Assembly: GCA_001600355.1 (NCBI GenBank)
Contig: BCJU01000004.1
Span: forward strand, 1,901,865 to 1,961,900
From: Meira nashicola
Taxonomy: Eukaryota > Basidiomycota > Exobasidiomycetes > Exobasidiales > Brachybasidiaceae
Reading direction: 5' to 3'
DNA: 60,036 bases
Shown: piece by piece, positions 700 through 60,036 of the stretch
Position numbering within the stretch: the first letter of the stretch is position 1
How the letters are laid out: every line of letters starts with the position of its first letter
Translations under genes and position numbers: made by a program
The notes under the pieces: model-generated
Databases searched by the model: none
Seen by the model: only the letters and a program-made list of their open reading frames with translations
Told to the model about the DNA's origin: nothing

Positions 700-1115
700 T
701 CGACATTTGCTGATCAATCAACAATCGTCAATCAAGCAGTCATCAATCAAGCAGCATTCATCAATCAAGCAGTAATCAATCAATCAATCAACCAACATTC
801 ATCAATCAAGCGGTAATCTATCAACATTCATCAAGTATCATCAAGTACATCATTTACTGTTGTCGTACAATCAATATGTGTGCAATTCTGTTAATCAATC
901 AGCAGTCACAAATAAAGCAGCATTCATCAACCAAGCAGCATTCATCAACCAAGCAGCATTCATCAACCAAGCAGCATTCATCAATCAAGCAGTAATCAAT
1001 CAAGCAGTCATCAAGTATCATCAGGTCTATCATTTGCTGTTGTCGTATGATCAATACATGTGCAATTCTGTTAATTAATCAGCATTCATCAACCAAGCAT
1101 CATTCATCAATCAAT
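700..1115 (+). repeat. 18-bp minisatellite with a higher-order unit
   Basis: The clearest run is at about 917-995, where GCAGCATTCATCAACCAA repeats in tandem about four times. More degenerate units (ATCAATCAAGCAGT-like) extend on both sides. A longer segment of about 55 bp, containing TGTTGTCGTA-like sequence followed by GATCAAT and GCAATTCTGTTAAT, is interspersed near 488-540, 842-896 and 1026-1080. This gives a two-level repeat. The 18-bp period keeps frames open and encodes a six-residue repeat of the FINQAA type. Confidence 0.8.
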
Positions 1116-6608: not shown

Positions 6609-7389
6609 CTTGGCTGCTCAATATCGAATTTGGCGGGCCAGCCGCAGCCGATTAAAATTTTTTGATGACGACAAAAACTGTGAGGATTGAATGATTCGCA
6701 AAGAGTACTTCTCAGTGGAACTTTAGGAGAAGGACCTTGGTTTTTGCTTTCTGTCACAAATCGATGAGCGGTTTTAAGAGTGACGTAATTATCAACGATG
6801 AGATCCTTTTAAAGATCAATGATTTGAGTCAATTATCGGCTAAAATGGTCAAAAACCGGCTTCTTGTGATGATGTTGGAGGTGATCAAAAGTAGAACAGA
6901 CACGCGTACTGACTACACATTTGATGCAAGAGGCGCGAAGGACCTTCTAATTGCTATAGCGGGTCAAAGCACACACGCACACGCACACATTACACGTCAA
7001 TGCATTCCTCTCGGGCGCAACTTAAGTCGCTCTAGTTTTAGAAGAAAGCGCGATGCCAGCATTGTCAAGTTTAAAGCTTAAATGCGTGGAAGCGACCCGG
7101 TTGAAATTAGCGTACACAGTGCTATGTGGGCGCCGACTTGTACGCACGTAAGAGCGATTCACCCCCTGGAATATTCAAGCTGGCGACCTATTATCGCACG
7201 TGGAATAGTCTTTAGTGGGGGAAAAAGGACAAACAGCCATTGGGCATTTGAATGGATTCATAAGCAGGACGGCGCCTGGATAAGGCGTAAAGAAGATACA
7301 TACACAGATCAGCGCGAGAATGATATCGGGACGACATTTAGACAAAGATTGAGTATACATAGCGACCACCACTATCACAAATCAAAAAG
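6609..7389. promoter_or_regulatory. Divergent promoter region SEC31 / NDUFS6
   Basis: A 781-bp gap between divergent start codons. It holds a short CA-type microsatellite near 6968-6990 and a CACGTG at 7197-7202. Open frames inside it (for example 6737-7081) show no recognisable protein family and I do not call them genes. Confidence 0.5.
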
Positions 7390-7994
7390 ATGTTGACAAA
7401 TGGAGCAATGATGTGCGCCCGTATGGGTCGTACAATGCTACGGAATGAGAGTACATCAATTTTGTCTTCCGGTGCACAATTTCGTTCTTTTAATTCATCG
7501 AGCAAGATTGCAATGCCATCTACACCTTCAGGATTCTTTTCACGTCCTCCAACAAAAGTATCTCAAAACCTTCCAAAAGCTACACATAAGACTGATGTCG
7601 CACAACCGCATACACCACCTGGAATTCCTACCGATCAAGCACCAAATTATCCAACAACATGGAGCGAAACACAAAATCCTCGTGAATTAGCAATGCGTGG
7701 ACCAAGATTTGAACAAATAACAACCGAATATCAACCTCAACCTTTGAGTGCAATGGAAATGATTCAAAGGGAACCTATCAGATTGACAACAAAGCGAGTA
7801 ATAGAATGTGATGGAGGAGATGGACCTTTAGGTCACCCTCGTGTATTTATCAATTTGGATAAACCCGGTCCAAAAGCATGTCCTTATTGGTATGTAGAAT
7901 TGCAACGAAGTATGAAGAAAAGCACATTTACTGACAAATCTTTCCTTTTCTCTAAAGCGGATTACGCTACGAAAGATCTGTCGAACATCATTAG
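7390..7994 (+). CDS. NDUFS6: Complex I 13-kDa zinc-finger subunit (NDUFS6-type), 2 exons
   Basis: Accessory subunit of mitochondrial NADH:ubiquinone oxidoreductase with a zf-CHCC zinc site. I join 7390-7889 and 7958-7994, giving 178 residues. The frame ending of exon 1 (ECDGGDGPLGHPRVFINLD then CPY) is the family signature. The 68-bp GTATGT...AAG intron splits the codon of the last zinc ligand: TG plus C restores Cys, giving CPYCGLRYERSVEHH and a stop. Without splicing this Cys would read as Trp and the frame would run into 33 unrelated residues. The N-terminal part is basic and Ser-rich (MCARMGRTMLRNES), consistent with a mitochondrial presequence. The long Pro-rich linker before the zinc domain is normal for fungi. 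The last exon is only 37 bp. The choice among several N-terminal Met codons is uncertain. Confidence 0.9.
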
Positions 7995-8158
7995 AAAACT
8001 TAATAATCGCAGATGTACGTAGACTTTGTACAATCAATTGCTTAATCAGGCGAAACTATATGCGCGCACACAAGATCTTGAAATGTGAAGATGGAATGAC
8101 TGAAATAGATTTTGAGATTGAATTCAGAGGAAATGGATTACAAGAGATGCTTTTATTT

Positions 8159-10562
8159 TTAATATGTCAAACTGCGTACCAATCCGTCCATGATTTGGAT
8201 TGCACCTGGTTTATACCATGTTTCGTGAACGTGTGGGAATGGTGTATCGAAGCCACCAATTCTACGAACGGGTGCTTCTAAGTTTAAAAAGCATGCTTGT
8301 TGTAAATGTGCAGCAATTTCTGCTCCTGCACCTGCTGTGATTGGAGCTTCATGAACGATTACGCATCTACCAGTTTTTGCAACACTTTCTGCTACCGTTT
8401 TTCTATCCCACGGTAAGATTGTACGTAAATCGATCAATTCTACCGATGCATTGCGAACGGATTGTGGAACATGTTGAGCGATTGAAGAAGGTGGATTTTT
8501 TACCATTTCCATTGCTTGAACGCATGAATAAAGAGGTGCTCCCCATGAAATAAGTGTAATATCTTTACCTTGTTGTAAAACTTCTGCAGTAGAAAGTGGG
8601 ATAGTAAAATCATCCACAGGAACGTGTTCGACTGAAAAGGGAAGAAAGAGAAATCATTTTTTAAGTTCAGTATAAGCTTGTTGAAAGAGAAATGTGCCAT
8701 ACTCACCACTTGAACGGTAAAGAATTTTTGGTTCTAAAAATACAACTGGATTCTCATCTCGAATGGAAGCCAATAATAAACCTTTTGCTTGAATAGGTGA
8801 ACGAGGAACAACGACTTTCAATCCTGCAGCTGGCATAAAAAATTGTTCAACGCTTTGAGAATGATAAAGTGCACCATGTCCAACGCCCATACAAGGACTA
8901 CGAATCGTTAATTTGCCTGCATTATGTTGATTTCCACTTCTGAATCTATATTTTGCTGCTTCATTAACAATTTGATCAAATGCTGGAAAAATATAATCGG
9001 CAAATTGAATTTCTGCAATTACTGTATGTCCCATTGCCGCTGCTCCTATTCCGAAACCAACAATACCTTGTTCGGTCAAAGGTGTATTAAACACACGTTC
9101 ACGACCAAATTCTTCTACCAAACCCATCGTACTACGAAACACACCACCAAACGAAACATCTTCTCCGAATACCAAAGTGGATTCATCAGATGCTAAGGCA
9201 TGAGATTGTGCATCACGAATTGCCTAGTAAAAAGAAGAAGAAAAAAGATATTTGTATCAGTATAATTGATTTCATATTGTCAGGATACATGGAGTCGCGG
9301 CAAGATCATAAAAAGAAGAAAAGGAAAAGTAGGTTTGCACGCGCTCGATTCGTTGGCAGAATTAAAAAACATGAACAAATGTAGAATATATTAAATGAAA
9401 TGACGTGCTGAAGAAAGTGTATGAGAAATAGGATCCGAAAAATGTGTTGTCTTTTCTATTCGCTTTGCTATGTTGATCAAGAAGAAGAAGAAGAGTCTAG
9501 AGCACGACGATGTGCGTCCAAAGTCAAAGCAACTTGACCTCCTCTTGCTTGATTCAATGTAGCAAGCAAACGAGCAGGTGTGGCGCTCAACAAGCCAACG
9601 ATTTGACTTCGCAAGACATCCAAAGTTGGCAATGCAGAAACATCACGCAAGCTTGGAATATCAACCACTTTTCTCACACCTTCACTTTGTTCAACAATAG
9701 CGGCCAAAGGTGTAAAGCGAGTATTGACGTTAGAAACAACTTTAACGTGAGATTGTCCCAATGCAGGTTTGGGTGCCACTCTACCTGCTTTTAAGGCACG
9801 ATCGGCCACCGAAAGAATACGGCTAATGTATGTTGGTGAAATATGATCAAAGGTCAACATAGCAATCGGCCCAACGAACAAATGATTGTTCTTTTGCAAG
9901 GAAGGATGTTTAGACATCCTTGCCAATTTGCGCATCATACCGCTTCGGACGATAGTCAGTCGTGCCTTTTTTGCGTCTTCTGCGCCATCAAGAGACACTG
10001 CTGCAATGTCATTACGAATTCGTGTCATTTCATGAACGCCGACATTATTGTGTTGAAACAAGATTATAACTTTGCTTTCTTCCAGCAAACGTTTATATTG
10101 TCCAAACAAGAATGCTTTGCGTTCAGGAAAGACACGTTGACGAGAAGAAGAAGAAGAAGAAGAAGCAATTACTTCAAAAGATTCCGTTGAAACTGGAGAA
10201 GCATGGGCAACAGACGAAGAGGAGAATGTACGATGCTGCTGTGACAGCAATCGTCTATTACGTACCGTATACATGTTCATCTTGCGAGCCTGTCTTTCAA
10301 TACCTTCTTCGCCGTCAGTCCATTGAATGCCGGGTGTTTGAGATGCTGATTTGGCATTATTGCGTAACAAAACACTTTGTCCAACGACTGGAATTTCTTC
10401 AGCTGCAGGTGGCGCAGATTCGACTGCACTTGATGTGGTTGTAGTTGCTTGACTTGTCGCTGAAGTTGAAAAAGGTGCACGACCTGAGCGCATTCCACGC
10501 ATCAATTGTTGAGAGACTGTTGGTCTTGAAGATCGTGCAAGTGGCGATGTAGCTGTATGCAT
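8159..10562 (-). CDS. BCKDHB: Branched-chain 2-oxoacid dehydrogenase E1 beta subunit, 3 exons, hosting uL10m in intron 1
   Basis: Beta chain of the thiamine-dependent E1 of the mitochondrial branched-chain keto acid dehydrogenase complex (Leu/Ile/Val catabolism). I join, on the minus strand, 10562-10266, 9223-8707 and 8631-8159, giving 428 residues with matching phases. Exon 1 ends [11 protein letters not shown], equivalent to human TQKMNLFQ. Exon 2 continues [12 protein letters not shown] then [12 protein letters not shown], and exon 3 continues from VEHVPVDDF to DGLVRSLTY. Intron 1 is GTACGT...TACTAG (10265-9224, 1042 bp) with a CTGAC branch-like site at 9283-9279. Intron 2 is 75 bp (GTGAGT...CAG). 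Exon 1 has a presequence-like start ([21 protein letters not shown]). Upstream of Met at 10562 the frame stays open into the aldo-keto reductase, so the true start is uncertain. Intron 1 contains nearly all of uL10m. Confidence 0.88.
9477..10280 (-). CDS. MRPL11: Mitochondrial large-subunit ribosomal protein uL10m, inside the BCKDHB intron
   Basis: Stalk-base protein of the mitochondrial 54S subunit (yeast Mrpl11, bacterial L10). The uL10 domain begins at [18 protein letters not shown], continues [14 protein letters not shown] and [12 protein letters not shown], and ends in a Ser run. The nearest Met codons (10280 and 10274) lie inside BCKDHB exon 1, in the same frame. From there [19 protein letters not shown] reads like a mitochondrial presequence ending before a Ser-rich stretch, giving about 265 residues. 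The donor GTACGT of BCKDHB intron 1 falls within this presequence, so the two mRNAs are mutually exclusive. The frame is also open upstream through BCKDHB exon 1 and the reductase, so the protein could instead be made as a longer fusion. A separate promoter cannot be excluded. AT-rich sequence (TTTAATATATTC-like) follows the stop and could support polyadenylation within the intron. Confidence 0.85.
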   Translation of the reverse strand: MNMYTVRNRRLLSQQHRTFSSSSVAHASPVSTESFEVIASSSSSSSRQRVFPERKAFLFGQYKRLLEESKVIILFQHNNVGVHEMTRIRNDIAAVSLDGAEDAKKARLTIVRSGMMRKLARMSKHPSLQKNNHLFVGPIAMLTFDHISPTYISRILSVADRALKAGRVAPKPALGQSHVKVVSNVNTRFTPLAAIVEQSEGVRKVVDIPSLRDVSALPTLDVLRSQIVGLLSATPARLLATLNQARGGQVALTLDAHRRALDSSSSS

Positions 10563-11675
10563 TCTGCGCACTGCAGTTCCACCAGGACCGAGCTCAGGTG
10601 CTTCTGGATCATTACGAGGTTCAAGGTAATGAGATCCATCTGCTTCGTGTGGTTTATCTGCTTCAAATGTGTTTGTTTTGAGAGAGTTGAGCATTTGTTG
10701 ATCCCGGTAATCTTCAAAGATATCCTCTTCCGTGTTCCATGTTTCAGTTGGATCGTTCGATCTCTCGATAGGTCTTGCTTGTGATTCTTCTGTAAGGTGC
10801 ACCACATCTTCCCATGCCAATTCTTTATCAGCAGCAGCAAATGTTTCTTCAATATGCGCTGGATTAGCACTTCGTGTCAAGGGAATGATACCACGAGCCA
10901 ATGGCCATGCGATCAATACTTGTGCCGGAGTCATATTATTGCGTGCTGCAACATCGTTCACGATTGGGTCTTCCAAATACTTTTGACGATTGATATGGGA
11001 ACCCAAAGTAGAGTAGGCTTGCAACATGATTTGATGGGCTTCGCTATAATGTAACAATTCAGTATTTGGAACTCCGAGATTAACTTCTACCTGATTAATA
11101 ACTGGATTTGTTTCGGTTGTGGCTTTCAACAGTTCTTCTGTACGACGAATGTTGAAGTTCGAAATACCGATACTGCGAACTTTGCCCTTTTTAACCATCT
11201 CTTCCATTTGTCTCCATGTTGTAGCCAAATCTTGCGATAACTTTGGCTCTTCGACAGGATAACCCGAAACGGAGCGAAGAGAAGAGATTTGAGAAGCATT
11301 TGGATTGGAAAAGGCAACAGGCCAATGCATAAGGTATAAATCCAAATAATCTACGCCTAAATCCTTCAAGGATGCATCGAGACCTACTTCTACTTTGTCG
11401 CCATGGAAGGTATTCCAAAGTTTACTGGTAATAAATAAATCTTTACGATCGATTCCTGATTTTCGAATAGCATCTCCGGTTGCATCTTCGTTTTTGTATG
11501 CCCATGCGGAATCAATATGACGATAACCAGTTTTAAGAGCATGAGTAACCGAAGCATGCGCTTGCTCTTTGTTCAATTTCCAAGTACCGAAACCGACCTT
11601 TGGAATACGTGCACCGTTTGCCAATGTCCACGAGGACACAGGTGCAGCTTTGCGTGCGATCATTGAAGCACGCAT
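10563..11675 (-). CDS. Aldo-keto reductase module, in frame with BCKDHB exon 1 and uL10m and lacking its own stop
   Basis: NADPH-dependent aldo-keto reductase fold. Residues 1 to about 330 cover the family from WTLANGARIPKVGFGTW onward. The catalytic tetrad is visible as Asp55 and Tyr60 (HIDSAWAY), Lys85 (FITSKLWN) and His117 (YLMHWPV). Later motifs are SIGISNF and a cofactor loop LTRSANPAHIEE. The start MRASMIARKAAPVSS looks like a mitochondrial presequence, which is inference. No stop codon occurs after the domain. About 40 further residues (ending LGPGGTAVRR) lead directly into BCKDHB exon 1, and the whole frame runs 732 codons to 9477. The feature end at 10563 is therefore a module boundary, not a termination. 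Either a fusion or polyprotein is made, or an unrecognised splice or internal promoter separates the parts. Substrate unknown. Confidence 0.8.
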
Positions 11676-12777: not shown

Positions 12778-15700
12778 TCACTTTGTGGTTGAGAATTTTT
12801 TGCTGTTGTGCCCTTTAAGGGTTTCTAATACTTCATCGTTGGATGAAGTTTCAGGATGTACTTGAATTTTTCCTCCTTGATATAATTGCCAAGAAGATAC
12901 ACTTGGATCTCCTGCTGCCGGTTCACTTCTACTTGCTTCTGGTGGATTAGAAGGATGCCAATTGCCCACAATACCTGCACCAATCAAAGCAGGAACTAAA
13001 GCCATCAAATTACCCGGATGAACTTCTGCTTCACGTAATTTTTGACTTCTAGTTTTGCCCATGAATGCCAATCTTGAACGTCCGCCGCGAATACGTGCGA
13101 ATGTGCCTAACTTTTGTGCTAATTGTCCGATCACAGGTGCATCCCAATCCACCTGATCAGCATCAGCTTGAACTTCTGTTGGTGAACGACGTTTGTGCTT
13201 AGGCAAGGCTTCTGGATCAGGCATTAATCCGAATCTGATCAAGATCAAATCGATAGGTTTAGTAGGAATCAATCGGATCAATAAACCAATTGGCCAAGAA
13301 ATCAATCCTGCGATCACACTTATTGCCCAATTAGTTCCGTCCAATTTAACAACACTGAATGCAGCACCACCAACGTAAACGATTAAAACTTGCAATCCAA
13401 CTTCGATAGCCATAATACCCATAAACCAAACATTTTTATGTAAACCTTTGAATATGTTCAAGTTTCGTGTCAAACTTCTACAATTGACTTGATTGAACAA
13501 TTGACAAAACACATAAACATTAAAGATTAATGCACGTAAAATTTCATCTTGAACTCTAATGCCTTCCGGATCGGTACGATTGTAACCTAGAATAGCATCA
13601 CCAGCAAAATTGAGCGTTAAAATCAATGCGAATTGATAGATAGATTGTCCGACAATCATCTTCCACATATCCGTTGTCAATAAAGGTGCTGTACGTCTAT
13701 CCGGTTTCCTATCCAAGAGATCGGGTGAAGCAGGATCGGTAGCCAATGCCAATGCGGCCAAGGTGTCCATAATCAAATTAATCCATAACAATTGAACGGC
13801 AGTAAAGACAGCTCTATCTGCAACTGCAGTAATAAATGTCACTCCAACAGCACCAATATTGACCGAAAGTTGAAATTGCAAAAATCTTCTGACTGCATCA
13901 TTTACACTTCTTCCCCACATGATTGCGGTAACGATTGATTCGAAATTATCGTCCATCAAGATGATATCACTTGCTTCACGTGCAACTTCTGTACCCGCAA
14001 TACCCATACTGAAACCAACATTAGCAGTCTTTAAAGCAGGAGCATCATTTGTTCCATCTCCTGTCACACCTACAACGTGTTCCATTCTCTTTAGACATTC
14101 GACTAATGTCTTTTTATCTTCAGGACTGCAACGTGCAAGAACTTGTAATCTAGGAACGATTTGCATCATATCCAAATCGTTTAATTGACGGAACATCGGC
14201 CCTTCCATAATTATACCACCAGGCGTAAAGATACCACATTGTGTTGCAATCGAACGAGCAGTCAATGCATTATCACCAGTGCACATCTTTACTTGAACGC
14301 CAGCTTTGGCACATGTTGCAACTGCGTTGCGTACACCTGGACGTAAAGGATCTTCGATACCAACAATAGAGATCAAGGTTAAATCATGAGCAAGACTTTC
14401 ATATTTCACCAAACCATCTTCGTCAAGTTGTGCTTCTTTCGGTGGCCATTCGGGTATATCTTTGTAACAGATTGCCAGAGTACGTAACATTTGATTCGCA
14501 TAGAAAATGATTGTTTTTGCCACATTTTGACGGGTATCATCATTGAACGATTTAACATCAATTTCTCCTGAAGAAGATTCTTGATGAACTTCAACATGTG
14601 AATTGCACAATTTAGTCAAAACTTCACTTGCTCCTTTCACGTATAAACGATAACCGCCTTCACGTTTTTTAACTACGACTGCCATTGCTTTACGCTCAGA
14701 GCTGAAAGGGAAATTTGTTACGACTTCATTTCGTATACGCGATTCGCGATAGCTCTCCCATTCCAATTCTTTCGACATTTTCAGTAAAGCAGTTTCTGTC
14801 TTTGAACCAACGAAAGTGGAAGAATCGGCTTTTGTATCTTTTTCCTTCTTTGCCATAAAGGGAATAGATTGTAGAAATTTGTCGAAGATTGATTTGCCTT
14901 TTGCATTTTCACGGATTGAACGAGCTTTTTCATCTTCTTCGAATGCGGTCGAATTTACGGCAATAGCATCATTGAACAATGTACGAAGAGGGCCGTCCAC
15001 TACTGAGCTCAATTCTCGTTGTTCTACAGCCCAATCACTGCTAGTCTTGCTTGCCCTCTTTGTCGTTTCATTTCCACCTTTTTGTGTTTCCACTCGTCCT
15101 TGATTTTCATTCATATCCCGTGCGAATTTCAAGTGAACACCAACACTACCTGCCACAACTGTCATCTCGTTAGAGGTTAATGTACCAGTCTTGTCAGTGC
15201 AAATGACGCTGCAATTGGCGCTCGTTTCACATGCAGACAAAAGACGGACCAATAGATTTTCCTTTGTCATTCTTTTGGTAGCAAATGCTAAAGCCAACGT
15301 TGTTGCCAAAGGTAAACCTTCGGGAACGGCAACAACAATGATCACAACTGCTTCAATAAGAATATCGATGAATGCTTGTGCTTTCTCGTCAGGAGTATGA
15401 GGTGAATCTGGTAATGGCTTGGCTAGTCGAACAAAGAATTTGATCATCAAAGCAATGAAGAGTAACACACCTGCAGTTGTACCGGCATACGCAATAATTT
15501 CTGCCAAACGATTGAGCTTTGCTTGTAGTGGCGTGATTTCGCTATCGGATCGTAAAGACATCATCAATTTACCGTGGAAACTTGTTGGGCCAACAGCAAT
15601 GACGACGTATTCTCCCACGCCTTCCATACAACGTGAACCGGAGATCAAGAAGCAATCACGATGAGGAATCTTTTCACCTGTACTTTCATGCTTTTCGAAA

Positions 15701-17193
15701 TCGGCAAGACATTCTTCATAAGAAACTTTGCGAATCATATCACTTTCACCTGTTGCGCCTGATTCATCACACTTGACATTATGACCACGTAAAAAGATAC
15801 CATCGCATGGTAAAACCTCTCCAGGTTCAATTTCCAGAATATCTCCTACTTGAACATGATGAACGTTCATCAAAGCACGCGTTCCTGATCGGATCACTTT
15901 CACATCTCTTTCTTCTTTTTTAGCATTCAACTTTTTGAATTGACGTTCTTTTTGCCAATCGTTCAAAGAACCAACAATATCAACAATCACAACTGCTACC
16001 AAAATTGCAACACCTTCAACCCAGTCCACGTTTGGCAATTCGCATCTTTCTTGACCCGGTGGAGGATTACTGCATTCAACAAATTCTGGCGGAGCACCAA
16101 AATCAGAGTAAAGACCAAGAGCCAAAGAGATAACTGCAGCAACGCATAACAAGATTAAAATTTTATCTTGCAATGCGAGCCACATCAAAAGAAGCAAGCT
16201 CTTACTTTTCTTCTCTGGTAATGTATTTGAACCATAAACACGCTTGCGATCATCCGAGCTTGCATGAACGAAAGGGTATTTTGATGATCGTTTTTCGTAG
16301 TCATGATTGCCTGATTCTAAATCTTCTTCATCCCTCAATTCTTCCTTTGGCTCCTGTGGTTCGATTGTATCCTCTCTTACCCCTGTACCGGAAGAAAGGT
16401 CAAGACCCTTCTCAGAATCGGTGCCCAAAGAAGCCAAAACACCTTGCACGCCTCCAAGATCTCGTAATGCGCCTACATTCTTTGGATCAACAAGATCAGC
16501 AAGTTCGATTGGACGAATACGAAAAGGTGCAGGATCCATCTCACGTTGTCTCTTTTTCAAAGCTTGCATCTCTTGTGCTTGAGCGGCTAAACGACCTGCT
16601 CTTGTTGCACCTGCAAAGTTTGCCTTTGTCTTTTTCAACCAAGAGCTATTCTTTGCAATTTCTTCATCTGCTTCTTTTGAAATTTCAGCCTTTTCACTTT
16701 TGAGTTTCTCATCTCGTGAAGCACCGGTTGAGATTGTTGCACTTTGATTTTTTGAAGTTTGAACGACATTATTATGATCATTTGATCGTGCATGCGTCAA
16801 ATCACCGCTCATATCGGTAAATGCAGGTGCAATGCTTGCTTGACGTAAATGAGCATGACGTGCTGCTGAAGGATCATTATCTCGCAAAGCCAATGTTGTT
16901 CGAATAGGAGTTGCAGATGCACTATCTCCGGAACCAGAAAAGTCCGAATGGGCACTGAACGTTGGCGAAGAAGGTGAAGGCACGTTAGAAGAATCACCTA
17001 TTCCAGTCTGTCCGGGAACTTGTAAACTCTCGTTTCTTCGATGTTGTCTGGGTTTATGCGGGGTCTCTCGGTTCTGGACAGCAGTGGTTGAAGTTGATGA
17101 TTCGAGATGAGCAACTTCCGTTTCATCTTTTGCTGATGTTTCAGTTGTGATGATCGTTGGAACAGCCGGTTTTTCGGTTGGTGGATTACTCAT
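12778..17193 (-). CDS. PMC1: P-type Ca2+-ATPase, vacuolar PMC1 type
   Basis: A 1471-residue type IIB calcium pump. In fungi this class moves Ca2+ from cytosol into the vacuole. The long hydrophilic Ser/Thr-rich N-terminal extension (about 330 residues) precedes the first membrane segment (LILLCVAAVISLALGLYSD). Key motifs are EPGEVLPCDG and CDESGATGESD (actuator), PEGLPLATTLA (ion-binding M4), the phosphorylation loop CTDKTGTLTS with Asp667, KGASEVL (nucleotide domain) and GDGTNDAPALK near residue 1042. Several hydrophobic helices follow. The C-terminus is hydrophilic and has no strong calmodulin motif that I can recognise. One exon, normal to long for the family. Calcineurin-type regulation is known for yeast PMC1 but nothing in the promoter proves it here. 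Confidence 0.95.
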   Translation of the reverse strand: MSNPPTEKPAVPTIITTETSAKDETEVAHLESSTSTTAVQNRETPHKPRQHRRNESLQVPGQTGIGDSSNVPSPSSPTFSAHSDFSGSGDSASATPIRTTLALRDNDPSAARHAHLRQASIAPAFTDMSGDLTHARSNDHNNVVQTSKNQSATISTGASRDEKLKSEKAEISKEADEEIAKNSSWLKKTKANFAGATRAGRLAAQAQEMQALKKRQREMDPAPFRIRPIELADLVDPKNVGALRDLGGVQGVLASLGTDSEKGLDLSSGTGVREDTIEPQEPKEELRDEEDLESGNHDYEKRSSKYPFVHASSDDRKRVYGSNTLPEKKSKSLLLLMWLALQDKILILLCVAAVISLALGLYSDFGAPPEFVECSNPPPGQERCELPNVDWVEGVAILVAVVIVDIVGSLNDWQKERQFKKLNAKKEERDVKVIRSGTRALMNVHHVQVGDILEIEPGEVLPCDGIFLRGHNVKCDESGATGESDMIRKVSYEECLADFEKHESTGEKIPHRDCFLISGSRCMEGVGEYVVIAVGPTSFHGKLMMSLRSDSEITPLQAKLNRLAEIIAYAGTTAGVLLFIALMIKFFVRLAKPLPDSPHTPDEKAQAFIDILIEAVVIIVVAVPEGLPLATTLALAFATKRMTKENLLVRLLSACETSANCSVICTDKTGTLTSNEMTVVAGSVGVHLKFARDMNENQGRVETQKGGNETTKRASKTSSDWAVEQRELSSVVDGPLRTLFNDAIAVNSTAFEEDEKARSIRENAKGKSIFDKFLQSIPFMAKKEKDTKADSSTFVGSKTETALLKMSKELEWESYRESRIRNEVVTNFPFSSERKAMAVVVKKREGGYRLYVKGASEVLTKLCNSHVEVHQESSSGEIDVKSFNDDTRQNVAKTIIFYANQMLRTLAICYKDIPEWPPKEAQLDEDGLVKYESLAHDLTLISIVGIEDPLRPGVRNAVATCAKAGVQVKMCTGDNALTARSIATQCGIFTPGGIIMEGPMFRQLNDLDMMQIVPRLQVLARCSPEDKKTLVECLKRMEHVVGVTGDGTNDAPALKTANVGFSMGIAGTEVAREASDIILMDDNFESIVTAIMWGRSVNDAVRRFLQFQLSVNIGAVGVTFITAVADRAVFTAVQLLWINLIMDTLAALALATDPASPDLLDRKPDRRTAPLLTTDMWKMIVGQSIYQFALILTLNFAGDAILGYNRTDPEGIRVQDEILRALIFNVYVFCQLFNQVNCRSLTRNLNIFKGLHKNVWFMGIMAIEVGLQVLIVYVGGAAFSVVKLDGTNWAISVIAGLISWPIGLLIRLIPTKPIDLILIRFGLMPDPEALPKHKRRSPTEVQADADQVDWDAPVIGQLAQKLGTFARIRGGRSRLAFMGKTRSQKLREAEVHPGNLMALVPALIGAGIVGNWHPSNPPEASRSEPAAGDPSVSSWQLYQGGKIQVHPETSSNDEVLETLKGHNSKKFSTTK

Positions 17194-58329: not shown

Positions 58330-60036
58330 GAATGTACTCACCTCTGATTGCTTGATTGATGGCAAAGATTGCTGGATGTCGATTGATGGCGAAGGTTGTC
58401 GGATGCTGATTGATGGAGAAGGGTTGGTGGAGATTGTCGAATGTTGATTTGATGATTGTAGCGACCTTGATAACGAATAGCGAAAGANGCGAGCTTATTT
58501 GTTGACCATATCTTCAAAAANAGTGATTTCGTCATGAATACATCGGAGATGATATCCAGCCTAGAACACCTTTCTCAGTCTGACATAATGACCCACTCCG
58601 TTTTACTCGGCCCATCAAACATCTTCGAGCACAGAAGATGCCGTCATAGACCTTTCATTCAAGAGGTGCTCTGGATCACCGATGACCAGACTGTATACTT
58701 ACCATGGTCGCTTGCTTACTTACCGTGATCGCTTACTTACCTTGCTCGCTCCTTTGCTTGCTTGCATGCTTGATCAGAAGACTTTGATTGGAATCACCTG
58801 GCGATTGTAGAAATCTTGATATTGAAAAGCGGTTTGGAAAGAATGTTGACTTATCGAATGTCGATGATTGATGATTGTTGATTGGTTGACGAATGTTGAT
58901 TGAATGACAAATGCTGGATGATTGGTGAATGCTGNATGATTGTCGAATGCTGAATGATTGTCGAATGCTGGATGATTGTCGGATGCTGGATGATTGTCGA
59001 ATGCTGGATGATTGGCAAGTGTTGATTGATTGGTGAATGCTGATTGATTGGTGAATGCTGATTGATTGGTGAATGCTGATTGATTGGCAAGTGTTGATTG
59101 ATTGGCGAATGCTGATTGATTGGCGAATGCTGGATGATTGGCAAGTGTTGATTGATTGGCGAGTGTTGATTGATTGGCGAATGCTGGCTGTTTGACAAAT
59201 GTTAGTTGATCGGCGAATGTTGATTGACTGTACTTACTCTGATTGTTTGATTGTGCATGTTGACAATTTCTTCCTGCTTGACCGGCAATGATCAGACCGG
59301 TTTCATGATTGACACGTTCTCCACTTTTGGTAATGATGAATTGACGTTGAGGTTTCATATCGGCTTGCTGTAATTGATCAACAGAAATGCGCATACATTG
59401 ATCGTACGACAACAGCAAATGATGTACTTGATCATACTTGATGAAACCTTGATACCAAACAGCGAAAGAAGCGAGAAAAGAAGGAAGGCTTTTGCACAAA
59501 GATGTTGTATTCTCCTTCGAAGATGAGTTTGTTGTGTAGTTCAAATCCATTGCGTTGGAAAGCAAGAAGAATTGCTTGATTTTCATGTAATTGATTGCCA
59601 AACAGATCGATTGGCCACCAATTACCTTACACAGAGAGTTCAGATTGCCTACTCGATCCCAAATCGTAAGTTTGTTCGTTTCATGGTAAACGAATTTAAT
59701 TGTTGTGGAACTGTTGCGTTTGCTGTGACTTCTTGAGTAGCAAATTGGTTTGAAGCGACTTTGAAAAAGTCTTGAACTTTGCGATACATAAAGTTGACTG
59801 CATCGCAGATTTGAAGGATCATGTCGTGAGAAATGAAGTTGAACATGTTTGGAAGATGAAGTCTGGTGACAAAAGAAGATGGTAATGAAGTGTGCGGTAA
59901 AGCGAAGTGTAGTTCGAGTGAACGATGTCTCAAAAAAAGGATGATTTTTAATGATGGCGGGAAGAAAGTAGAAGTTGGGGATGCGAGAATGGGTTTTATT
60001 GAATTTCATTCATGCGATTAGCTTCTGCATGTAGAA
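58330..60036 (-). repeat. Right terminal repeat block, homologous to the left one in inverted orientation
   Basis: Ns occur at 58489, 58521 and 58935. The minus strand gives a 411-residue open frame (60009-58774) whose distal part contains MDLNYTTNSSSKENTTSLCK and SGERVNHETGLIIAGQ, matching the plus strand of the left end. The proximal part is an 18-bp minisatellite. In another minus frame the distal part reads NMFNFISHDMILQICDAV, loosely like an F-box start, which is speculative. No intact transposon enzyme is recognised. Confidence 0.75.
58845..59230 (-). repeat. 18-bp minisatellite array
   Basis: About 20 degenerate units of TGATTGATTGGCGAATGC type (plus-strand reading) in tandem. The six-residue translation NQSAFA varies at Ser/His, Ala/Thr and Phe/Leu. 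It is homologous to the array at 700-1115. The 18-bp period keeps at least two frames open across the whole array, so open length here is not proof of coding. Confidence 0.85.

What the first reader, a model, noticed from the sequence alone, without database searches (positions are those of the whole stretch)
8159..11675. uL10m embedded in frame in intron 1 of BCKDHB: two mitochondrial proteins from one precursor
Seen: BCKDHB exon 1 ends [11 protein letters not shown] at 10266, followed at once by GTACGT. Its continuation [12 protein letters not shown] starts at 9223 after TACTAG, in phase 0. Between them, in the same frame, lies a full uL10m ending at 9477, with a CTGAC branch-like site at 9283. 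Known: in maize and rice, mitochondrial rps14 sits in an intron of sdh2, and alternative splicing gives either protein from shared targeting sequence. Inference: splicing gives the E1-beta subunit, while intron retention or intronic polyadenylation gives uL10m. This would tie mitochondrial ribosome supply to branched-chain amino acid catabolism through one splicing decision. I know of no such description in fungi.
Basis: partly seen in the sequence, partly recalled or inferred. Interest (0 to 1): 0.92.

Follow-up and report, generated by a model that had tools for sequence, protein, structure and literature searches.

The report
Three mitochondrial proteins from one gene
In this smut-related fungus one unbroken reading frame runs through an aldo-keto reductase, the first part of a branched-chain amino acid enzyme and a mitochondrial ribosomal protein, and relatives carry the same three-part protein; a choice between splicing and not splicing would then likely decide which of the last two is made, giving three predicted mitochondrial proteins from a single gene.

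Summary
On the minus strand one frame is open from ATG 11675 to the stop at 9477-9479. It encodes an aldo-keto reductase (AKR), the presequence and N-terminal exon of BCKDH E1-beta (ending at 10266, donor GTACGT), then uL10m. The rest of E1-beta lies at 9223-8707 and 8631-8159. No stop separates AKR from E1-beta: this is an AKR-E1-beta fusion gene whose 1,042-nt first intron holds uL10m in frame.

Proteins of 12 named genera in two classes of Ustilaginomycotina carry the fusion. The residue after the exon end is Val in 41 of 44 sequences, as a GT donor requires; the other three read as spliced there. Four sequences have no Met that could start E1-beta with its presequence; Ceraceosorus has none at the uL10m boundary. 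Relatives outside the clade show the parts apart.

Best explanation: one AKR-headed precursor with two alternative ends, cut inside mitochondria. The fusion and its conservation are shown; splice choice, import and cleavage are inferred. No RNA evidence was available. Closest known: grass sdh2-rps14, and tandem precursors cut by MPP.

The parts
10710..11675 (-). Aldo-keto reductase domain (P0001 residues 1-322), start codon at 11675
   Evidence: PF00248 residues 26-294, E 3e-47; five AKR proteins of other basidiomycetes align up to residue 316-324 and end there or within 3 residues; Foldseek aldose reductase E 5e-25
11628..11675 (-). N-terminal extension of the AKR, presequence-like (MRASMIARKAAPVSSW)
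   Evidence: at least 2 K/R and no D/E in 26 of 26 sequences with an intact N-terminus, out of 44; targeting is inferred
10560..10709 (-). Linker between AKR and E1-beta, in frame, no stop
   Evidence: mean pairwise identity 0.56 in 30 sequences; pLDDT below 50 over most of residues 305-512
10407..10559 (-). Internal presequence-like segment of E1-beta ([13 protein letters not shown]...RAPFSTSA)
   Evidence: R-x-[FYLM]-[STA]-[STA] motif in 39 of 44, shuffle mean 6.1; looser motif 39 against 10.9; D/E 0.7% against 10.2% overall
10266..10406 (-). E1-beta N-terminal coding part, end of exon 1 (...[11 protein letters not shown])
   Evidence: 117 of 117 E1-beta proteins from outside the fusion set align across the junction, starting at median residue 414, i.e. 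56 aa before it; human BCKDHB aligned across the junction
10260..10265 (-). 5' splice site GTACGT, read as Val-Arg when not spliced
   Evidence: Val in 41 of 44; the next residue is R 39, C 1, G 1, all encodable by NGT; P0218 reads Val-Ser, P0044 Val-Gly
10137..10265 (-). uL10m presequence-like segment ([18 protein letters not shown]...)
   Evidence: same motif in 34 of 41, shuffle mean 5.3; looser motif 38 against 9.8; D/E 1.8% in the first 30 residues
9477..10136 (-). uL10m core and stop codon (9477-9479)
   Evidence: 6ywe_f uL10m E 5e-7; PF00466 E 5e-5
9224..9476 (-). Intron sequence after the uL10m stop (253 nt): candidate 3' UTR/poly(A) region, branch-like CTGAC (9279-9283) and CTGAT (9256-9260), pyrimidine tract, TACTAG acceptor
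   Evidence: sequence; the poly(A) role is inferred
8707..9223 (-). E1-beta exon 2 (AIRDAQ...)
   Evidence: PF02779 E 2e-33
8632..8706 (-). Intron 2 of E1-beta, 75 nt, GTGAGT...CAG
8159..8631 (-). E1-beta exon 3 and stop
   Evidence: PF02780 E 3.5e-32

Best explanation
This locus is one gene whose single reading frame encodes an aldo-keto reductase and then forks at a splice donor, so that splicing would likely give an AKR-E1-beta precursor and reading on into the intron would likely give an AKR-uL10m precursor. Both precursors are predicted to enter mitochondria by the basic N-terminus of the AKR part and to be cut at internal presequence-like segments (by the mitochondrial processing peptidase, MPP) into AKR plus E1-beta, or AKR plus uL10m. 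Exon 1 would act as a composite terminal exon: when the 10265 donor is not used, transcription would end by cleavage and poly(A) addition in the 253 nt after the uL10m stop (or the intron is retained). Both outcomes would have to be produced, because I found no second copy of uL10m or BCKDH E1-beta in the genome. Shown by sequence: the unbroken frame in this genome, the conserved donor position, the conserved linkers, the absence of internal Met starts in some species, and relatives in which the three proteins are apart. Inferred: the two RNAs, import, cleavage, and any regulation.
For: One frame open for 749 codons spans all three parts. Of 97 hits to the whole frame, 45 (P0002-P0046) show the fusion or part of it and 52 match the AKR domain only, by their Pfam column. 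43 of the 45 plus the query carry the linker and junction motifs and make up my set of 44; the two missed by my pattern are P0036 and P0044.

Named members fall in Ustilaginomycetes (Ustilaginales, Urocystidales) and Exobasidiomycetes (Exobasidiales, Ceraceosorales, Microstromatales) (five looked up).

After KMNMYT the residue is Val in 41 of 44; the three exceptions read as spliced exactly there (P0028, P0029, P0045). The following residue is R, C or G, S in P0218, as GTN-NGT requires. Thecaphora P0045 is modelled AKR-E1-beta through the predicted junction.

No Met lies in the E1-beta presequence of P0020, P0024, P0029 and P0040, so an AUG start there is excluded; Ceraceosorus P0010 has KINLYT, with no Met at the uL10m boundary.

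The three named clade models among the 120 rows listed by the E1-beta search are all fused to AKR. The uL10m profile found no complete standalone clade protein. AlphaFold gives two folded domains with a mostly disordered 305-512 between. Cleavage-like motifs exceed shuffles about sixfold, or 3.6 to 3.9-fold with a looser motif. Only two GTRNGT sites lie in the 2,196-nt frame.
Against: There is no RNA or peptide evidence. Relatives were seen as proteins only, so donors are read from amino acids, acceptors from gene models, and introns elsewhere in their genes cannot be excluded. The search admits only proteins of 0.55-1.75 times the query's length and scored only the 7995 candidates sharing most words, so separated AKRs under about 403 aa would not appear. 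Public models are predictions: P0022, P0031 and P0036 join AKR to E1-beta by donors other than the predicted one, and P0028 and P0029 jump from the donor into uL10m. In 43 of 44 sequences a Met in the KMNMYT motif could start uL10m, and in 40 of 44 some Met in the linker could start E1-beta. MPP cleavage was judged only by composition and motif; the shuffles do not allow for relatedness of the sequences.
Confidence: 0.72

Rival explanations
1. uL10m is a nested gene with its own promoter inside exon 1 and starts at ATG 10280 ([23 protein letters not shown]); only AKR-E1-beta is a shared precursor.
For: The stretch from ATG 10280 reads as a good presequence and has A at -3; P0218 is a 228-aa frame called from MNMYT on a 784-nt contig; 43 of 44 sequences keep at least one Met in that motif.
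Against: Those Met residues belong to the conserved E1-beta motif KMNMYQ/KMNLFQ seen in E1-beta without uL10m, so their conservation says nothing about a start. Ceraceosorus P0010 has KINLYT and no usable Met. In all 41 sequences that keep Val the protein runs on through the donor into uL10m.
Confidence: 0.15
2. As in grass sdh2-rps14, uL10m is reached by splicing exon 1 to an alternative acceptor in the intron.
For: Models P0028 and P0029 jump from the same donor position into the uL10m N-terminus, as P0217 might.
Against: In this genome no in-phase AG lies 31-299 nt into the intron; those at 27 and 30 nt are too close and the one at 300 nt lies inside the uL10m core. The segment that such splicing would remove carries a recurrent motif in 34 of 41.
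Confidence: 0.06
3. The precursors are not cut: AKR stays covalently joined to E1-beta and to uL10m as bifunctional proteins.
For: No cleavage is shown; the fusion has been kept across the clade.
Against: The segments between the domains are mostly disordered and look like presequences with recurrent R-x-F-S-type motifs. A 470-aa N-terminal appendix on uL10m would have to be tolerated by the mitoribosome (inference).
Confidence: 0.06
4. Assembly or annotation artefact: neighbouring genes happen to lie in one frame.
For: Adjacent same-strand genes; public models of the locus differ (P0022, P0028, P0029, P0031).
Against: The fusion is found in models of 12 named genera and in unnamed assemblies; the linker, absent from the five AKRs compared, is conserved at 0.56 mean identity.
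Confidence: 0.01

Closest known systems
Nuclear sdh2-rps14 of grasses (PMC1543663, abstract and passages read; proteolysis of the maize precursor, Figueroa 2000, seen there as a cited reference only)
   Same: A mitochondrial ribosomal protein lies in an intron of a gene for another mitochondrial enzyme, shares its first exon, and alternative RNA processing gives either product; the fusion precursor is thought to be cut to release the ribosomal protein.
   Different: Here no splice is needed to reach the ribosomal protein (continuous frame, composite terminal exon); a third complete enzyme, AKR, heads both precursors; uL10m has its own presequence-like segment; different kingdom and different proteins.
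MPP-cleaved tandem precursors: yeast Arg5,6; S. pombe Rsm22-Cox11; Atp25 (PMC8847149, passages read; primary work Friedl 2020 not read)
   Same: Two folded mitochondrial proteins in one frame with internal presequence-like segments and cleavage motifs.
   Different: As far as I know those have one fixed C-terminal partner; here the partner would be chosen at RNA level between E1-beta and uL10m. Cleavage is not shown here.
SKI7/HBS1 alternatively spliced gene of fungi (PMC3597508, abstract and section list read)
   Same: An ancient fungal gene that makes two functionally distinct proteins by alternative splicing, kept in many species, with mechanisms that vary.
   Different: There the two products come from one gene of related domains (recalled); here they are unrelated proteins.
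Immunoglobulin mu composite terminal exon (recalled, no call)
   Same: A 5' splice site inside a terminal exon competes with poly(A) addition.
   Different: There the products differ in their tail; here in the whole second protein.

Membership tests
sdh2-rps14-type nested mitochondrial gene | Second mitochondrial protein lies in an intron of the host gene, same strand, in frame with the upstream exon | tested here: met
   recurrent in relatives at protein level
sdh2-rps14-type nested mitochondrial gene | Exon 1 joined to the nested frame by an alternative acceptor | tested here: not met
   no in-phase AG at 31-299 nt into the intron; frame continuous. P0028 and P0029 models suggest it elsewhere, unverified
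sdh2-rps14-type nested mitochondrial gene | Both mRNAs exist | not testable with these tools
   no RNA data at hand
MPP-cleaved tandem precursor | Two or more separately folding mitochondrial proteins in one frame | tested here: met
   two domains with a mostly disordered 305-512 between; PF00248 and PF00466 in one frame. That the AKR is mitochondrial is inferred
MPP-cleaved tandem precursor | Internal presequence-like segment with cleavage motif | tested here: met
   39 of 44 and 34 of 41 against shuffle means 6.1 and 5.3; the motif definition is recalled
MPP-cleaved tandem precursor | N-terminal presequence on the first protein | tested here: inconclusive
   composition fits in 26 of 26 intact N-termini, but the extension is short and no predictor was available
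MPP-cleaved tandem precursor | Cleavage by MPP | not testable with these tools
   needs N-terminal peptides or in vitro processing
BCKDH E1-beta (BCKDHB) | Closest solved relative is BCKDH E1-beta, not PDH E1-beta | tested here: met
   1dtw_B E 9e-125 against human PDH E1-beta 8e-45
uL10m | Closest solved relatives are mitochondrial uL10 | tested here: met
   6ywe_f 5e-7, 8uxa_e 1e-6; cytosolic P0 0.017
Aldo-keto reductase | Catalytic tetrad Asp-Tyr-Lys-His (recalled) | tested here: met
   D55 and K85 invariant, Y60 and H117 in at least 90% of 19 aligned sequences

The most novel reading that the evidence does not exclude
In a whole fungal subphylum a single obligatory gene sets the ratio of mitochondrial ribosome stalk protein to branched-chain keto acid dehydrogenase by one splice-or-polyadenylate decision, while a constant AKR is co-made with either; the decision responds to amino acid or translational state, so that mitochondrial protein synthesis and branched-chain amino acid burning trade off by construction.
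Probability: 0.3. Interest if true: 0.93.

Novelty: new variant of a known kind. Interest (0 to 1): 0.83.

Why it matters
Two core mitochondrial genes, each without a second copy found here, share one donor site, and the arrangement is kept across two classes of fungi. A change in splicing of that intron would be expected to move two core functions in opposite directions, with a third enzyme produced in both cases. It joins two known tricks, the tandem precursor cut in the matrix and the nested dual-output gene, in one locus, and offers a natural test of how internal presequences are recognised. It also accounts for conflicting public models: the exon is given to uL10m in most of them, to E1-beta in Thecaphora, and to chimeras in Kalmanozyma and Moesziomyces, so one of the two proteins is likely truncated or lost on paper in many genomes.

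Tried and rejected
Looked for relatives' DNA in viral contigs and genome contigs: no relative. Considered that E1-beta has another first exon: rejected, because 117 of 117 E1-beta proteins align across the junction, from a median of 56 aa before it, as does human BCKDHB. Considered a second BCKDH E1-beta in the genome: L003 is PDH E1-beta; the other five places were not examined. Considered a hidden intron that gives AKR its own stop: only one other GTRNGT lies in the frame, at 11387 inside the AKR core; weaker donors were not scanned. A comparison with AKR paralogue N-termini of the own genome gave two usable rows of 19 loci (L019 and L021, both with acidic residues; L013 matched at a wrong place), too few to count. 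A first count of E1-beta alignments (118) was of alignments, not proteins; one search gives 117 proteins, 4 of which carry another extra domain by their Pfam column.

Literature: ten searches, all answered. No listed paper describes this locus by title or abstract start; two listings were partial (12 of 21, 12 of 1,565), the single paper was not read, and subscription papers and preprints are not held. The U. maydis EST paper PMC2219887 was searched for five terms: four had no occurrence and the passages on 'ribosomal protein' do not mention this gene.
Full report
What is there. The window lies in a 17.9-Mb genome whose locus is 91% identical at protein level to that of Meira miltonrushii (P0003; Exobasidiomycetes). 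On the minus strand a single frame is open for 749 codons, stop to stop. From ATG 11675 it reads an aldo-keto reductase (PF00248, E 3e-47), then a linker, then the presequence and N-terminal part of BCKDH E1-beta, then uL10m (PF00466, E 5e-5), with its stop at 9477-9479. The rest of E1-beta follows at 9223-8707 and 8631-8159 after introns of 1,042 and 75 nt.

Identity of the parts. Spliced E1-beta matches human BCKDHB without a gap across the proposed junction (E 9e-125; human PDH E1-beta 8e-45). uL10m matches Neurospora uL10m (5e-7) before cytosolic P0 (0.017). The AKR part folds as aldose reductase. The genome search found three L10-family places; the other two read as P0 and Mrt4 (recalled). 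It found seven transketolase-type places; L003 is PDH E1-beta and five were not examined. So no second uL10m or BCKDH E1-beta was found.

The fusion is conserved. A search with the whole frame gave 97 hits. 45 of them (P0002-P0046) are fusion proteins or pieces of them; the other 52 carry an AKR domain and none of the other two, by their Pfam column. Of the 45, 43 plus the query have the junction motifs and form my set of 44. P0036 (labelled as a fern, probably a contaminating fungus) and P0044 were missed by the pattern; P0044, read later, also continues with Val. Named genera: Meira, Ceraceosorus, Testicularia, Pseudozyma, Ustilago, Jaminaea, Kalmanozyma, Melanopsichium and Moesziomyces, whose models read through the donor into uL10m; Sympodiomycopsis and Parajaminaea, whose models jump from the donor into uL10m; and Thecaphora, whose model is AKR-E1-beta. 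Five were looked up and span Exobasidiomycetes and Ustilaginomycetes. The linker between AKR and E1-beta has mean pairwise identity 0.56 in 30 sequences, against 0.66 for the AKR core and 0.52 for the uL10m core.

The three parts are apart elsewhere. Five AKR proteins of other basidiomycetes, chosen, align up to query residue 316-324 and end there or within three residues; two of these (P0054, P0055) carry another domain in front. 117 of 117 E1-beta proteins that have no AKR align across the junction, from a median of residue 414, 56 residues upstream of the donor.

The donor is conserved although it is read as protein. Directly after the exon end the residue is Val in 41 of 44; the other three (P0028, P0029, P0045) read as spliced exactly there. 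The next residue is R in 39, C in 1, G in 1, S in P0218 and G in P0044. These are the residues of NGT codons, so all fit GTN-NGT. Four models contain the rest of E1-beta, and all four begin it at AIRDAQ; only Thecaphora P0045 uses the predicted donor, while P0022, P0031 and P0036 use others.

Separate starts are excluded in some species. Between the AKR core and the donor motif, P0020, P0024 and P0040 have only a Met at the eighth residue of the linker, far before the presequence, and P0029 has none, so no AUG can start E1-beta at its presequence. In Ceraceosorus P0010 the motif reads KINLYT, so uL10m cannot start there. If AUG starts are assumed, these species must make E1-beta, or uL10m, as part of a longer fusion. 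The other 40 and 43 of 44 sequences do have a Met that might serve.

Signs of cutting. The AKR N-terminal extension has at least two K/R and no D/E in 26 of 26 intact N-termini (18 of the 44 are truncated or do not fit the pattern). The segments before E1-beta and uL10m have 0.7% and 1.8% acidic residues against 10.2% overall. A motif like that of matrix processing sites (recalled definition) occurs in 39 of 44 and 34 of 41 sequences against 6.1 and 5.3 in shuffles; with a looser motif 39 against 10.9 and 38 against 9.8. The shuffles do not allow for relatedness. AlphaFold shows a folded AKR, a mostly disordered 305-512 and a folded uL10m (mean pLDDT 62.9, so only the domain layout is used).

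RNA step. The donor GTACGT at 10265 is one of two GTRNGT sites in the frame. No in-phase AG lies 31-299 nt into the intron, so a grass-like alternative acceptor is not available here; 253 nt lie between the uL10m stop and the end of the intron. I therefore favour a composite terminal exon: either the donor is used, or transcription ends in the intron. Plain intron retention would leave intron 2 downstream of a stop and is less likely (inference).

Limits. No RNA, no peptides, no DNA of relatives. This is partly balanced by the uL10m profile search, which found four proteins, three short-contig pieces close to the clade and P0219, and no complete standalone clade uL10m. It is also balanced by the E1-beta search, in which the three named clade models among the 120 listed of 6232 hits are all fused; unnamed rows were not identified, and E1-beta models under about 354 aa were outside its range.

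Compared with the known. Grass sdh2-rps14 is the nearest (PMC1543663, abstract and passages), tandem precursors cut by MPP are second (PMC8847149, passages), and SKI7/HBS1 shows that dual-output genes last in fungi (PMC3597508, abstract). This locus combines the first two and adds a third protein. I found no description of it in the searches, with the limits told under Tried and rejected.

Noticed in passing
window 7363-8022 (+): A frame with the zf-CHCC domain (PF10276), NDUFS6-like by recall, convergent with E1-beta and ending about 137 nt from its stop: another probable mitochondrial gene next door.
   Followed up: partly
P0036 (448 aa): AKR-E1-beta piece filed under the fern Adiantum nelumboides, 68% identical; probably a contaminating exobasidiomycete in a plant assembly.
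   Followed up: no
P0022 (1045 aa) and P0031 (939 aa): Public models of Kalmanozyma and Moesziomyces fuse AKR, all or part of uL10m, and E1-beta through a different donor: an annotation trap caused by this locus.
   Followed up: partly
window 58777-60009 (-), repeat 58879-59227: An 18-bp tandem repeat of about 19 copies lies inside a 411-aa frame that matches the middle of phosphoglucose isomerase, near the window edge.
   Followed up: no
window 735-1114: Array of ATCA-rich repeats with an approximately 180-bp higher-order period near the window start.
   Followed up: no
window 12778-17193 (-): P-type cation ATPase frame of 1471 aa in one open frame, upstream neighbour of the AKR start.
   Followed up: no
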